From: a bacterium
Lineage (GTDB): Bacteria; UBA9089; CG2-30-40-21; SBAY01
Reading direction: 5' to 3'
Assembly: GCA_040757115.1 (NCBI GenBank)
Contig: JBFLYA010000213.1
Coordinates: 1 to 6,472 of the forward strand
Length of the DNA: 6,472 nucleotides
Program-made: the position numbers and the translations under genes
The notes under the pieces: generated by a model
The model's input: the letters and a program-made list of their open reading frames with translations, nothing else
Databases searched by the model: none
What the model was told of the DNA's origin: nothing
Part shown: piece by piece, positions 1-5,532 of the stretch
How the letters are laid out: each line of letters begins with the position of its first letter
How positions within the stretch are numbered: the stretch's first letter is position 1

Positions 1-127
1 TTGTTTTCCACAATCAATTTCTACCTATTTCTATAAATTTCAATCTATTTCTATTATCTTATCTCCATATCACTCTTATCTCCTTATCCCCTTTCTTACA
101 CTTTTGATATATAGCTTGAACGGTTAC
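1..127 (-). mobile_element. Partial IS66-like MITE, copy A (inverted relative to the copy at 4368-4596)
   Basis: Read on the minus strand from 127 down to 1, this stretch matches 4368-4486 with about four mismatches over 119 aligned bases plus one 8-nt indel. Copy A carries the extra 8 nt, as a near-tandem GATAAGGAGATAAG. It begins with the terminal repeat GTAACCGTTCA and continues into the same purine-rich arm with TAGAAATAG repeats. The element runs off the left edge, so its other end and target duplication cannot be seen; the flanking 8 bp on the visible side are GATTTTTA (128-135). The end lies inside the 3' end of rpe. No coding capacity of its own. Confidence 0.85.
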
Positions 128-767
128 GATTTTTAAGACTTTTTATTGCCTCAACAGGGTCTTGAGCACCATAGACAAAAGAGCCTGCGACTAAAACATT
201 TGCCCCTCGTTTGACGACTTCAGCCCCGGTCTCAAGGTTTATTCCGCCATCTACCTCAAGGTCTAAATTAAGTTTTTTTTGAGTTATAATCTTGTTTAAT
301 TGCTCTATCTTGGGCAAAACATCATTGATAAATCCCTGTCCACTAAAGCCTGGATTAACGGTCATCACCAGGGCAACATCTATCTCTTTTAGAACAGGAT
401 AAATTTTATCCAGTGGGGTTGGCGGATTGATAGATACACCGGCTTTTACTCCCCTATCCTTTATCTTCTGAATATTTAACATCAGGTCATCTGTAACTTC
501 GGCATGAAAGGTGATTAAATCCGCACCAGCATCAATAAACTTATCAATAAATTTATCCGGATTAGTAATCATCAGATGAACATCAAAGAAAAGATTACTC
601 TTTTTGCGAAGATTTGCGACGGCATCTGGTCCAAAGGTAAGATTATCGACAAAATGTCCATCCATAATGTCCCAATGTAACCAATCGGCAACATCTTCTA
701 TTTTTTCTACCTCGCTGGCTAATTGACTGATGTCAGCTGATAATATTGAAGGTGCTATCTTTATCAT
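96..767 (-). CDS. rpe: Ribulose-phosphate 3-epimerase, C-terminus supplied by a MITE
   Basis: Interconverts D-ribulose 5-phosphate and D-xylulose 5-phosphate in the cytoplasmic pentose phosphate pathway. The 223-aa product is normal length for this (beta/alpha)8 TIM-barrel family. Visible hallmarks are the N-terminal APSILSAD (residues 5-12), the metal ligands H31 and D33 in HWDIMDGHFV, H64 in DVHLMI, the phosphate loop NPGFSGQGF (138-146), and D173 in VDGGI, the second acid/base. The start at 767 gives the family-typical MIKIAPSILSAD beginning. Upstream in-frame ATGs at 806 and 782 fall in the -35 and -10 boxes of a strong promoter, so they are unlikely. Residues 215-223 and the TAA stop are encoded by the end of a MITE (1-127), so the native tail has been replaced; the catalytic barrel is intact, so activity is probably kept. 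No strong Shine-Dalgarno is visible. Function is confident; the start is fairly confident. Confidence 0.95.
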   Translation of the reverse strand: MIKIAPSILSADISQLASEVEKIEDVADWLHWDIMDGHFVDNLTFGPDAVANLRKKSNLFFDVHLMITNPDKFIDKFIDAGADLITFHAEVTDDLMLNIQKIKDRGVKAGVSINPPTPLDKIYPVLKEIDVALVMTVNPGFSGQGFINDVLPKIEQLNKIITQKKLNLDLEVDGGINLETGAEVVKRGANVLVAGSFVYGAQDPVEAIKSLKNRNRSSYISKV

Positions 768-822: not shown

Positions 823-944
823 AAAACGAAAGGAAAAACGAAAAAGTTTATAAGAATTAAAAATAACTCTTGACAAATCCCTCTGGATGTAGTATAATAT
901 AATTAGAGGTTTCAAGAGCAATAAAAACGAAACTAAAAACGAAA
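823..944 (+). promoter_or_regulatory. Four AAAACGAAA direct repeats around the FapA-gene promoter (putative operator)
   Basis: AAAACGAAA occurs at 823-831, 835-843, 924-932 and 936-944. Each pair has start-to-start spacing of 12 nt, and the two pairs lie 101 nt apart, on either side of the promoter at 870-898. The core is the same in all four copies and includes a CG step that is uncommon in AT-rich DNA. The paired layout suggests a regulator binding cooperatively upstream and in the 5' untranslated region, but no known operator is recognised. Chance A-richness is the main alternative. Confidence 0.4.
870..898 (+). promoter_or_regulatory. Consensus sigma70-type promoter for the FapA-family gene
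   Basis: TTGACA at 870-875 and TATAAT at 893-898 are both perfect consensus hexamers with a 17-nt spacer. The predicted start is near 905, leaving an untranslated leader of about 64 nt before the ATG at 969. Confidence 0.85.
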
Positions 945-968: not shown

Positions 969-2414
969 ATGACACACCAGGTTACTTCAACAAAACCAGA
1001 AGCTTTGACGATAAAAATTACTGAAGATGGGCTAAAGGCTTTTATGACTATTAATTCCAACAATTGCCATCAGCTATCTTTAGACTTAAATTCCATTCTG
1101 CAAAGATTAAATAAACAAGGGATAAAGTTTGGGATAAAAGACCTGGTGATTAAAACTATACTACAAGATAAAATCTATAATCGCTCGATATTAGTTGCCG
1201 AAGGAATCCCACCGCAAGCAGGTAAAGATGCCAGCATTGAATATAAATTTAACAAAAAAGATAAACCAGGGTTATTGGAGGACATAGAAGGAAAAGTGGA
1301 TTTTCGTGAATTAAGATTAATTGATATTGTGCATACAAATGATGTGCTTGCCTCTAAAATCCTTCCTACTCAAGGAACTCCTGGCAAAAAAGTTACAGGT
1401 GAACAAATACCTGTTAAAAAAGGAGAGGATATTAATATCCCGGTTGGTGAAAATACCTGCCTTTCCCATGACAAATTAACACTTTTTTCATCAGCGGATG
1501 GTTATGTATTCTGGGAAGATAGTAGAATTGGTGTCAAGACAACTTATGAAATCCTATCTGATGTTGATATGAATGTCGGAAATATCAATTTTATAGGTCC
1601 GGTTAAGGTCAAAGGAGATGTAAAAGAAGGTTTTTTTGTTAAGGCTAAAGGAGATGTTGAAATTGGCGGCGTGGTAGAAAACGCAACCGTAATCTCTGAA
1701 GGAAATATTACGGTTATGCAAGGAATCATTGGCAGTAAATCTAAAATCGTGTGCGATGGTGATTTAAAATGCAAATTTATCCAGAATGCTAATATTGAGG
1801 TTAAAGGTAATATCATTGTTCATGATGCTATTTTACATAGCGATGTCCATGCGGGAAAAGGTGTTTTTGTCTTAGGTGGAAAAAAAGGGGCGATTATTGG
1901 TGGGAGAATCTCGGCTAAAGAAGAAGTAAATGCTAAAAATATTGGCTCTATCTCCGAGGTTACTACTGAAATCGAAGTCGGTGTTGACCCTCAAATTAGA
2001 CAAGAAATAGATGCATTAGAAGAAAGTTTAACTACGGAAAAAACTCAATTACACCAGGAAAGGTTAAATTACAAAACATTACTTGCTCAAAATAAAACAG
2101 AGTTAGCCGAACAATCATTATCTAAACAAAAGGAATTAGAAGAGGTTATTAAAATGATGCATCATCACTTATATGAATTCAAAAAACATGTCCGTGCTAA
2201 CTATAAAGGTAAGGTATCTGCCTTTGATACACTTTGGCCAGGTGTAAAACTTACTATTGGCAATGCTACAGTTCCACTAAAAATTGATTATCGGTATGTC
2301 ACCTTTTATAATAGCGTCGGCCATATTGAACAGACTGGATATGAAAAACCAAAAATTAAAGTAGAAACACCTACGATTACTTATTGGGAAAGAGAAATTG
2401 ATAAGGTAAAATGA
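969..2414 (+). CDS. DUF342 / FapA-family polymer-forming-like protein
   Basis: The 481-aa product has the layout of the DUF342/FapA family. An N-terminal region of about 190 residues includes the characteristic KILPTQGTPGKKVTGE segment and a GENT...SADGYV stretch. A run of short Val/Ile/Gly-rich repeats follows (about 195-335: VGNINFIGPVKVKGDV, GDVEIGGVVENATV, GNITVMQGI and others), reading as a right-handed beta-helix. Next is a Glu/Gln/Lys-rich probable coiled coil (about 340-400), then a beta-rich tail. No signal peptide or membrane segment is visible, so it is probably cytoplasmic. Some family members are named flagellar assembly protein A, but no flagellar gene is present here and that role should not be assumed. 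The gene has its own consensus promoter and ribosome-binding site, and ends 118 bp before the DeoR-type gene. Family assignment is confident; biological role is unknown. Confidence 0.88.
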   Translation: MTHQVTSTKPEALTIKITEDGLKAFMTINSNNCHQLSLDLNSILQRLNKQGIKFGIKDLVIKTILQDKIYNRSILVAEGIPPQAGKDASIEYKFNKKDKPGLLEDIEGKVDFRELRLIDIVHTNDVLASKILPTQGTPGKKVTGEQIPVKKGEDINIPVGENTCLSHDKLTLFSSADGYVFWEDSRIGVKTTYEILSDVDMNVGNINFIGPVKVKGDVKEGFFVKAKGDVEIGGVVENATVISEGNITVMQGIIGSKSKIVCDGDLKCKFIQNANIEVKGNIIVHDAILHSDVHAGKGVFVLGGKKGAIIGGRISAKEEVNAKNIGSISEVTTEIEVGVDPQIRQEIDALEESLTTEKTQLHQERLNYKTLLAQNKTELAEQSLSKQKELEEVIKMMHHHLYEFKKHVRANYKGKVSAFDTLWPGVKLTIGNATVPLKIDYRYVTFYNSVGHIEQTGYEKPKIKVETPTITYWEREIDKVK

Positions 2415-2532: not shown

Positions 2533-3651
2533 ATGGAAAAATCATCATCTGAAACAAGACGATATGTTATTTTAAAAGAGATTTATAAAAAAAGGGTTGT
2601 CTCTAACGATGATTTAATGGATAAATTTGGAGTTTCGTTAGTAACAATTAGAAAGGATTTAGATGAACTTAAATCACTGGGATTGGTAAATAGGACATTT
2701 GGTGGGGCAGTCCCTATCATGGCAAAGGTAAATGAAGATAATTTGGAAGGTTCTATTGAAGACCGCTCGGAGATAATTGCCATTAGTAAATATATTGTCG
2801 ATAAAAAAGTTATAAAAGATGGTGATATTCTATTTATGGATGGTGGAATAATTATTAATATGCTGGCAAAAAGATTATCTGATAAAAAACCAGGACACAT
2901 CACTGTCATTACAAATGCCGTCAATGTCGCCAATGAACTTGCCTCTAAATCAAATGTTATTCTCACCGGCGGTGACCTGAAAGACACCCAGGGAGTTCTC
3001 TCAGGAAATTTATCTACCCAAACAATTGACCAATATTCAGTTGATGTAGCATTTATAGATGTTGATGGCATATCGTTTAATAGCGGATTATGGGCTAAAG
3101 ATGAAGTTGAGGCTCAGGTTAAAAAGCGAATGATTAAAGGAGCAAAGCAGGTAATAATTATGATCAAACATTCAAAATTAGGTCACGAGGTAGGTCAAGT
3201 GTTTGCAGAATTTTATCTTGAAGAAGGAAATAATCTGAAACTTATGCTCCCGGATTTAAAAGATGAAAAAACAGTGAGATTAGATTTTGTTGATCTACCA
3301 TCTGATTATAAATCATTAGAAAATGACCCTGTTCAAAAGTGGCTTGAAAAGAATTTAAAGGAAAAAGGTATAACCGAACCAATCTGGGTCAAAGAAAAAG
3401 CAGGTGGTAGGTTTGAAATTATTGATGGTAAAAGAAGGTATTTGGCGGCTAAATCACTTGCAGATGAAGGCTCAAGCACCTTTTCTTCCATCCCCATAAA
3501 ATTTGAAAAAGAATCTTGTGTCAAGCGTGATTTCCAGATTATCACCTCGTCAAAATACCTCAAGCAAGATGTGGCAAAGAAACACTTTTTAGCAGAAAAG
3601 AGAAAATTCGAAGAGATAGCCCCAAATACCTTCATTGATATTGCCGATTGA
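2533..3651 (+). CDS. DeoR-family regulator fused to a ParB-N-like C-terminal domain
   Basis: A 372-aa predicted DNA-binding regulator; typical DeoR repressors are near 250 aa. Residues 1-60 are a DeoR winged helix-turn-helix with recognition helix VSLVTIRKDLDEL and the FGGAVP end motif. Residues about 76-232 follow the DeoR sugar-phosphate sensor fold: KDGDILFMDGG, ITVITNAVNVANEL, TGGDL, VDGISFNSGL, KHSKLG. Usual ligand residues are altered: the D-x-G-S/T-T motif is DGGIII (103-108), GLT is GLW (185-187) and DHSK is KHSK (212-215), so the normal sugar-phosphate effector may not bind. Residues about 255-345 are extra. KEKGITEPIWVKEK followed by RFEIIDGKRRYLAAKSL (293-309) closely resembles the ParB N-terminal segment around its GERR motif, here GKRR, and is followed by IPIKF. 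The later ParB ENLQR motif and HTH are not evident. The gene probably follows the FapA gene in one transcript and ends one base before repeat DNA. DeoR assignment is confident; the ParB-like assignment is by pattern only. Confidence 0.85.
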   Translation: MEKSSSETRRYVILKEIYKKRVVSNDDLMDKFGVSLVTIRKDLDELKSLGLVNRTFGGAVPIMAKVNEDNLEGSIEDRSEIIAISKYIVDKKVIKDGDILFMDGGIIINMLAKRLSDKKPGHITVITNAVNVANELASKSNVILTGGDLKDTQGVLSGNLSTQTIDQYSVDVAFIDVDGISFNSGLWAKDEVEAQVKKRMIKGAKQVIIMIKHSKLGHEVGQVFAEFYLEEGNNLKLMLPDLKDEKTVRLDFVDLPSDYKSLENDPVQKWLEKNLKEKGITEPIWVKEKAGGRFEIIDGKRRYLAAKSLADEGSSTFSSIPIKFEKESCVKRDFQIITSSKYLKQDVAKKHFLAEKRKFEEIAPNTFIDIAD

Positions 3652-4110: not shown

Positions 4111-4359
4111 AGAGAAGTTACTATTTATACACAAGCCCTCTTAAACTTTTCCTCCTGGATAGTCTCCGAATTGTCCATTTATCAACCGTGTTTCCCCAGT
4201 TTACCCCTTCTGATACGGCAGAGGTTACCGCTTTTGTTCAGATTATCAGTGGTTATACCTGCTGAGCGTATTAAATGGACATCTTTGGCTATCTCCTATA
4301 CGGTTATGTCCCTTCATCCTGATTTTCTCAAGATTACTATGAACAATGCTGACGACTCT

Positions 4360-4367
4360 AAAAATGG
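4360..4367. repeat. 8-bp target-site duplication, left copy
   Basis: AAAAATGG immediately before the left end of the MITE, identical to 4597-4604. An 8-bp duplication is the size expected for the IS66 family. Confidence 0.9.
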
Positions 4368-4596
4368 GTAACCGTTCAGGCTATATATCAAAAGTGTAAG
4401 AAAGAGGATAAGGGCGATATGGAGATAAGATAATAGAAATAGATTGAAATTTATAGAAATAGGTAGAAATTGATTGTGGGAAACAACAAATTTCCATAAA
4501 TTTCTATTAGTTTCTACTAATTTCAATTTTTTTAATAATATCTCCCTATCTCCTTAATCTCCACATCTCCTTTTGTTACCCCACCTGAACGCTTAC
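4368..4596 (+). mobile_element. 229-bp IS66-like MITE, complete copy B
   Basis: The ends are GTAACCGTTCAGG (4368-4380) and CCTGAACGCTTAC (4584-4596), inverted repeats with one mismatch (GTAA[C/G]CGTTCAGG). Perfect 8-bp AAAAATGG copies flank it. Beyond the ends, the arms are loosely complementary: the left is purine-rich with GGAGATAAGATAATAG and two TAGAAATAG units 20 nt apart (4434, 4454), and the right is the pyrimidine-rich counterpart, so the whole element can fold into a long imperfect hairpin centred near 4487. IS66-family elements are known for GTAA termini and 8-bp duplications. No transposase is encoded, so it must be mobilised in trans. A nearly identical inverted half copy is at 1-127. 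Confidence 0.9.
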
Positions 4597-5228: not shown

Positions 5229-5339
5229 GCAAAAATTGCTTACCAAAGAATCACAAATTGTCACCCTAATATAGTATAGGATTGTATGGAGACTATCGTG
5301 TCAATTGAGCGAACGCCTTAAGATGAGTGATTATCGGAA

Positions 5340-5500
5340 AGCCGTGTAAGGGAAAACCTTCGGGTCACCCACGAAGTGGGTCGGGTTTGATGCGGGGGTG
5401 TTGGAGAAGTGCTATAGTGAACCTAAAACAGGCATCGTTGGAAACGATTGAGGCAACCAAAGGAACACCTACGGTAACTCGCCAGTGCTCTACTCTACTA
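5340..5500 (+). ncRNA. Possible decayed group II intron 3' end (domain V/VI-like)
   Basis: AGCC (5340-5343) can pair with GGTT (5384-5387) in the manner of the domain V catalytic AGC/GUU base, followed by AAGG-GAAAA-CCTT (5348-5360). Domain V is normally a single hairpin of about 34 nt; here an extra stem ACCCAC-GAA-GTGGGT (5367-5381) takes the place of the expected closing strand. GGTTTGATG then leads into a domain VI-like helix with GGTGTT (5397-5402) pairing AACACC (5464-5469), an inner stem ATCGTT/AACGAT, and the end GTGCTCTACTCTACT (5485-5499) typical of intron 3' junctions. No reverse transcriptase precedes it. Assignment is by recalled motif style only. Confidence 0.4.
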
Positions 5501-5532
5501 AAAAAGGGGTGAAGTTGGGCTAAAAGTAGGAT

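What the first reader, a model, noticed from the sequence alone, without database searches (positions are those of the whole stretch)
2533..3651. DeoR repressor fused to a ParB-like domain
DeoR proteins normally stop near residue 250. This one continues for about 120 residues containing GITEPIWVKEK then RFEIIDGKRRYLAAK, very like the ParB N-terminal box around GERR, where ParB binds CTP. If real, this would be a sugar-type repressor with a nucleotide-binding or clamp-like module, or a regulator borrowing a ParB-fold enzyme domain. The change GERR to GKRR and the absence of an ENLQR motif suggest altered or lost CTP hydrolysis.
Basis: partly seen in the sequence, partly recalled or inferred. 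Interest (0 to 1): 0.75.

Follow-up and report, generated by a model that had tools for sequence, protein, structure and literature searches.

The report
DeoR repressor carrying a ParB-fold domain
A bacterial gene switch of the sugar-repressor (DeoR) type has acquired the nucleotide-binding fold of the chromosome-segregation protein ParB, and it probably controls only its own two-gene operon; whether the fold still senses a nucleotide is the open and testable question.

Summary
Window 2533-3651 encodes one 372-aa protein: a DeoR helix-turn-helix (9-60), a DeoR sensor domain (92-221) and a ParB_N/ParB-CTPase-fold core (about 242-325). The ParB match passes Pfam's cut-off, holds profile-to-profile (hhalign 97%), works in reverse (a profile of the tails alone retrieves ordinary ParBs), and gives a model close to ParB, Noc, PadC and sulfiredoxin.

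It is no assembly error: the same architecture occurs in four genomes of two genera, with dN/dS about 0.08-0.2 across the tail. It was not found elsewhere at the sensitivity used.

Box I (GITEP) and the GxxR of Box II (GKRR) persist; the Box II glutamate and ENLQR are lost, as in PadC, which binds but does not hydrolyse CTP. The DeoR sugar-phosphate loop is also altered.

New here: the gene follows fapA (beta-solenoid protein). The fapA promoter is a perfect TTGACA-N17-TATAAT flanked in all four genomes by two pairs of 12-bp-spaced ACGAAA repeats, 99-101 bp apart, nearly unique in each genome: a typical DeoR-type operator.

Best reading: a dedicated autorepressor of the fapA operon whose ligand input was moved to a non-hydrolysing ParB-fold domain. 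Nucleotide binding is inferred, not shown.

The parts
2533..3651 (+). deoR-parB fusion gene, 372 aa
   Evidence: open frame; orthologues of the same length in G001, G002, G003 at 96/73/73% identity; purifying selection in the tail
2557..2712 (+). HTH_DeoR DNA-binding domain, residues 9-60
   Evidence: PF08220 E 1.5e-12
2806..3195 (+). DeoRC sensor domain, residues 92-221; phosphate loop and two other conserved positions altered (T107I, G176D, D212K/G), K215 kept
   Evidence: PF00455 E 1.2e-32; comparison with 35 DeoR proteins
3256..3507 (+). ParB_N / ParB-CTPase-fold core, about residues 242-325
   Evidence: PF02195, hhalign 97.1%, model pLDDT above 90 over this stretch, Foldseek and VIA-align matches to ParB, Noc, KorB, PadC and Srx
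3367..3381 (+). Box I (C motif) loop GITEP, residues 279-283
   Evidence: alignment to ParB GIIQP
3427..3438 (+). Box II (P motif) GKRR, residues 299-302 (ParB GERR); invariant in the four orthologues
3520..3648 (+). segment after the ParB core, residues 330-372; no ENLQR; resembles the C-terminus of the DeoR protein of G012
969..2414 (+). fapA (FapA_N plus FapA beta-solenoid), upstream gene of the putative operon in all four genomes
   Evidence: PF03961 E 7.6e-70, PF20250 E 3.8e-45
870..898 (+). sigma-70 promoter TTGACA-N17-TATAAT (12 of 12), conserved in the four genomes
826..843 (+). upstream operator pair ACGAAA-N6-ACGAAA
927..944 (+). downstream operator pair ACGAAA-N6-ACGAAA, 101 bp from the first

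Best explanation
It is a DeoR-family transcriptional repressor in which a ParB-CTPase-fold domain (the ParB/sulfiredoxin fold) sits at or inside the end of the sensor domain. Shown by sequence: the two modules, their conservation, the changed motifs, and a conserved operator-like array. Inferred: the DeoR helix-turn-helix binds the two ACGAAA repeat pairs that flank the fapA promoter, bridging or occluding it, and so represses fapA and its own gene. The usual sugar-phosphate site is degraded, so the signal is most likely read by the ParB-fold domain, which binds a nucleotide (CTP, ATP or GTP; identity not predictable) through Box I and GKRR without hydrolysing it, and changes the oligomer or its DNA affinity. 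It would thus act as a concentration sensor and not as a sliding clamp.
For: ParB homology by Pfam, NCBIfam and PHROG, hhalign 97.1%, E 7e-11, PDB profile search with Noc at 9e-5, reverse search retrieving ordinary ParB-sized ORFs, fold matches ParB Z 12.9, KorB 10.9, Srx 10.8, PadC 9.4. Architecture and fapA neighbour conserved in four genomes; dN/dS about 0.08-0.2 in the tail between genera. Box I and GxxR kept, E and ENLQR lost; the same losses occur in PadC, a non-hydrolysing CTP binder (PMC8494293), and Box III is often absent in orphan ParB-fold proteins that still bind NTPs (PMC12704722). Operator: two ACGAAA-N6-ACGAAA pairs around a perfect promoter in all four genomes while the surrounding intergenic DNA diverges. 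In G001 and G002 these are the only exact pairs in the genome; in G003 the only exact pair is one of these two; in G000 the one extra copy lies inside a coding sequence. DeoR-type operators are direct repeats of 10-11 bp period, and Chloroflexus RhaR binds four tandem TCGAAA sites (PMC3870299). This is the only DeoRC protein in the genome.
Against: No binding data of any kind. The glutamate-to-lysine change in Box II could remove magnesium or nucleotide binding altogether; in the PNAS survey only 11 of 28 purified ParB-fold proteins bound an NTP. The full-length model failed (pLDDT 34); the good model of the tail used 45 ParB rows, so its fold is not independent of the homology. In G003 the second repeat pair is imperfect (GCGAAA...ACGAAA). 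The repeat pairs are assigned to this protein by proximity and type, not by test; the control pattern occurs 3-6 times in each of these four genomes, so the genome-wide count alone is weak and the argument rests on position and conservation.
Confidence: 0.5

Rival explanations
1. The ParB-fold core is a structural or oligomerisation module that no longer binds a nucleotide; the protein is an autorepressor that responds to something else, such as a remaining DeoR ligand.
For: Glutamate-to-lysine in Box II and loss of Box III in all four orthologues; K215, T127, G146, G147 and other DeoRC positions are kept; many ParB-fold proteins did not bind NTP in vitro (PMC12704722).
Against: The stretch GGRFEIIDGKRRYLAA is invariant across two genera while its flanks differ, and both arginines and the glycine that bind phosphates in ParB are kept.
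Confidence: 0.3
2. A feedback sensor for FapA: the ParB-fold domain binds the FapA beta-solenoid, as PadC connects a ParB-like domain to bactofilin, and FapA level or assembly relieves or sets repression.
For: Conserved fapA neighbour and shared promoter; PadC, one of the fold matches (Z 9.4), works with the bactofilin cytoskeleton (PMC12704722).
Against: No interaction data; FapA is a large paralogous family here, with about ten matches per genome; PadC's bactofilin contact is not known to me to lie in its ParB fold.
Confidence: 0.15
3. A ParB-like DNA clamp or spreading silencer with a DeoR head for loading, using the nucleotide as a gate as KorB does.
For: Fold match to KorB, Noc and ParB.
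Against: No ParB-type HTH, no ParB dimerisation domain, no ENLQR; only one site cluster per genome.
Confidence: 0.04
4. Artefact: chimeric assembly or frameshift joining two genes.
For: The window is from a draft genome of 462 contigs.
Against: Four independent genomes, two genera, the same junction, purifying selection on both halves.
Confidence: 0.01

Closest known systems
DeoR/GlpR family repressors (PF08220 + PF00455), e.g. GlpR, AgaR, RhaR of Chloroflexus aurantiacus
   Same: HTH, sensor domain, direct-repeat operator of GAAA type, location beside the controlled gene
   Different: about 120 extra residues with a ParB fold; altered phosphate loop; neighbour is fapA and not a sugar operon; 12-bp and not 10-11-bp period
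ParB-CTPase fold proteins (PF02195): ParB, Noc, KorB, VirB
   Same: fold of the core, Box I loop, G and both R of Box II
   Different: no ParB HTH or dimerisation domain, glutamate of GERR replaced by lysine, no ENLQR; domain lies C-terminal to a DeoR repressor
PadC of Myxococcus xanthus
   Same: ParB fold, lacks both catalytic glutamates, associated with a beta-solenoid type of protein (bactofilin there, FapA here by gene neighbourhood)
   Different: PadC is a ParA adaptor without a DeoR domain; CTP binding is proven for PadC and not here
Other ParB-fold regulators: SbnI, DndB, ParB-fold/Sigma70 fusions (PMC12704722)
   Same: ParB fold linked to transcription control, nucleotide as input
   Different: different partner domains; a DeoR partner is not mentioned in the main text of the 2025 survey

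Membership tests
DeoR/GlpR family repressor | N-terminal DeoR HTH plus DeoRC sensor domain | tested here: met
   PF08220 1.5e-12 and PF00455 1.2e-32, both above cut-off
DeoR/GlpR family repressor | conserved sugar-phosphate loop (GTTT) and other sensor residues (typical, not defining of the family) | tested here: not met
   T107 is I in all four orthologues (T in 34 of 35 others); G176 is D; D212 is K or G; K215 kept
DeoR/GlpR family repressor | direct-repeat operator at the controlled promoter | tested here: met
   two pairs of 12-bp-spaced ACGAAA in four genomes; binding itself not tested
ParB-CTPase fold (PF02195) | profile match over the curated cut-off | tested here: met
   26.7 bits (full protein) and 28.5 bits (tail) against 26.3; two of the four orthologues fall just below
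ParB-CTPase fold (PF02195) | fold | tested here: met
   model residues 12-99 align to ParB at Z 12.9, 2.4 A over 81 residues; the model was built with ParB rows in its alignment
ParB-CTPase fold (PF02195) | nucleotide binding | not testable with these tools
   needs a binding assay; Box I loop and GxxR are present
Canonical ParB of ParABS | GERR and ENLQR motifs | tested here: not met
   GKRR; SSKYL in place of ENLQR; a profile of the ParB Box III region gives no match
Canonical ParB of ParABS | ParB HTH and partner parA | tested here: not met
   only DeoR HTH found; no parA seen beside the gene; the genome has a separate true ParB at G000:C101
PadC-type non-hydrolysing CTP binder | both catalytic glutamates absent | tested here: met
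   with PadC described in PMC8494293
PadC-type non-hydrolysing CTP binder | CTP binding without hydrolysis | not testable with these tools
   assay needed

The most novel reading that the evidence does not exclude
A sugar-type repressor whose metabolite sensor was disabled and functionally replaced by a ParB-fold NTP sensor nested in it, so that a nucleotide level (possibly CTP) gates a dedicated two-operator switch on a beta-solenoid (FapA) operon: a nucleotide-sensing DeoR repressor, for which I found no description.
Probability: 0.35. Interest if true: 0.68.

Novelty: new variant of a known kind. Interest (0 to 1): 0.52.

Why it matters
ParB-fold domains are known as CTP switches, and a 2025 survey showed that they are repeatedly fused to other domains and can bind ATP or GTP, with no way to predict which. 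A fusion to a classical one-component repressor, with an identified operator, gives a compact system in which nucleotide binding can be read directly as a change in DNA binding. It would also show how a one-component regulator can swap its ligand class by acquiring a new domain.

Tried and rejected
1. Full-length structure prediction with three sequences: pLDDT 34, unusable. 3. Fusions elsewhere: plasmid and phage tblastn hits with long coverage (e.g. Deinococcus deserti, 98%) were reading-through past the end of an ordinary annotated DeoR gene of about 250 codons. Long open frames with DeoR hits in other genomes had N-terminal extensions or unrelated tails and no ParB match. 4. The genome-contig scan used only two short patterns and found the two orthologues of the sister genus; viral scans with the tail found none. 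5. Assigning the post-core segment by profile: neither the DeoR C-terminal nor the ParB Box III profile matched convincingly; only the pairwise comparison to the G012 DeoR tail did (0 and 1 of 20,000 shuffles for two orthologues, 0.005 for the window), against 0.33-0.91 for the genome's own ParB. Nested insertion is therefore a lead, not a result. 6. An additional site in G000:C86 lies inside a coding sequence of a restriction-modification-like gene and was discarded. 7. Defence-system library: only weak HTH matches. 8. The alternative that the repeats are a general motif: of four genomes of the sister family that lack the regulator, three have no exact pair and one has a single pair in coding-like DNA.

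Full report
What is there. The window holds rpe (96-776, minus), fapA (969-2414), the finding's gene (2533-3651) and, further on, repeats and a small HTH gene. The finding's protein has HTH_DeoR at 9-60, DeoRC at 92-221 and a ParB_N match at 271-309 over Pfam's cut-off. NCBIfam and PHROG give the same picture. A profile of the four orthologous tails finds Noc in the PDB at 9e-5, matches a ParB profile at 97.1% and E 7e-11 over 40 columns, and, searched against 386 genomes, retrieves ORFs of mostly 270-310 aa, ParB-sized, in about 45 of them, with matches spread over profile positions 8-108. The tail also matches the genome's own ParB beyond 20,000 shuffles.

Extent of the ParB fold. An alignment with 45 ParB N-domains from viral contigs places the whole core, from the first strand to the strand after the GxxR helix. 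A model from this alignment has pLDDT of about 90 or more for residues 242-324 and low confidence after that. It matches ParB (Z 12.9), Noc, KorB, sulfiredoxin, free serine kinase, SbnI and PadC. The model leans on ParB rows, so it supports the extent of the domain more than its identity, which rests on the sequence comparisons.

Motifs. Box I loop GITEP and the G, R and R of Box II are kept and GGRFEIIDGKRRYLAA is invariant in four orthologues (Box I is GWTEP in the sister genus). The Box II glutamate is lysine and ENLQR is replaced by SSKYL. In B. subtilis ParB both glutamates are needed for CTP hydrolysis but not for binding, and PadC lacks both, and binds CTP without hydrolysis (PMC8494293). 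The 2025 survey of the fold found Box III often absent in orphan proteins, NTP identity unpredictable, and 11 binders among 28 purified proteins (PMC12704722). So binding without hydrolysis is plausible, and neither binding nor the nucleotide is shown.

The DeoR half. Compared with 35 DeoR proteins, the phosphate-loop threonine 107 is isoleucine in all four orthologues, G176 is aspartate and D212 is lysine or glycine, while K215, T127, G146 and G147 are kept. That this loop binds sugar phosphates in the family is established knowledge, not tested here. The HTH is normal. This suggests that DNA binding is intact and the usual ligand site is not. It is the only DeoRC protein of the genome.

Is it nested? 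The segment after the core, RDFQIITSSKYLKQDVAKKHFLAEKRKF, resembles the C-terminus of the DeoR protein of G012, from the same phylum (RHFKIVTDDNFATEEERDIFEAERKKF): 0 and 1 of 20,000 shuffles for two orthologues and 0.5% for the window, against 33-91% for the genome's own ParB Box III region. Ordinary DeoR proteins end with such an I-V-T-D element soon after the conserved H-S-K-x-G. This would put the ParB core inside the end of the DeoR domain. Profile searches did not confirm it, so it stays a lead.

Reality and spread. The architecture is in all four held genomes of the family (two genera), at 96, 73 and 73% identity. Between genera dN/dS is 0.16-0.18 in the tail where it could be computed, 0.08-0.18 in the ParB box, against about 0.11 in the DeoR part. 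It is absent from the other 15 genomes of the phylum, from 367 further genomes and 398 genomes of another phylum at the thresholds used, and from plasmid and phage collections. These searches would miss very diverged fusions.

Operon and operator. In all four genomes the gene follows fapA. Upstream of fapA is a TTGACA-N17-TATAAT promoter (12 of 12) conserved in all four. Around it lie two pairs of ACGAAA repeats, 12 bp apart within a pair and 101 bp between pairs in three genomes and 99 bp in G003, where the second pair has one changed base. No mononucleotide shuffle of 100,000 of this intergenic region gave two pairs. In the whole genomes the exact pair occurs 3, 2, 2 and 1 times (G000, G001, G002, G003), and all but one of these eight are at this promoter; the exception is inside a coding sequence. 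Conservation of the repeats and promoter against diverged surroundings is a phylogenetic footprint. Operators of DeoR-type RhaR regulators are direct repeats of 10-11 bp period, and Chloroflexus RhaR binds four tandem TCGAAA sites (PMC3870299). The simplest assignment is this regulator acting on its own operon. Repeat pairs on both sides of a promoter at a fixed distance fit occlusion with bridging; this is inference.

Mechanism and judgement. Best-supported model: an autorepressor dedicated to the fapA operon, with a ParB-fold domain as probable nucleotide input. Shown: modules, conservation, motif losses, operator-like array. Inferred: operator binding by this protein, nucleotide binding, allostery. 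The finding is real and more interesting than an odd tail, because the likely target site is now identified and nucleotide control can be tested in one EMSA. It is a new fusion variant of a fold already known for fusions, hence not categorically new.

Noticed in passing
window 1-138 and 4357-4486: Inverted copies of a dispersed repeat of about 130 bp (94 and 89% complementary arms) flank rpe-fapA-deoR/parB. The repeat has at least 40 copies in G000 and in G001 and is nearly absent from the sister genus: a MITE-like element that expanded in this genus.
   Followed up: partly
G000 and relatives; e.g. G017:C203, G018:C111, G016:C36: FapA-type proteins are strongly expanded in this phylum: about ten matches per genome in this family, and open frames of 1000-2100 codons with several FapA stretches in others. 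Function unknown.
   Followed up: no
G000:C297 (L061 654-2123): The closest paralogue of fapA sits directly upstream of genes that read as ribosomal protein S16, a KH-domain RNA-binding protein and a tRNA (guanine-N1) methyltransferase, a translation operon (product names from reading the sequence).
   Followed up: no
window about 5280-5520; L102 7861 onward: A conserved stretch in both species of the genus looks like the 5' part of a group II intron or similar RNA, but no Rfam family reached its threshold.
   Followed up: partly
G012:C19 (L005 689-1645): A 318-aa DeoR protein with its own unusual C-terminal extension lies directly upstream of genes that look like heterodisulfide-reductase subunits; no ParB_N match was found in this genome, which is 84% complete.
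   Followed up: partly
SBAY01000191.1 (L038): The public record is titled 'Nitrospira sp.', yet its sequence equals genome G003 of the window's own family; the label is probably wrong or the bin mixed.
   Followed up: no
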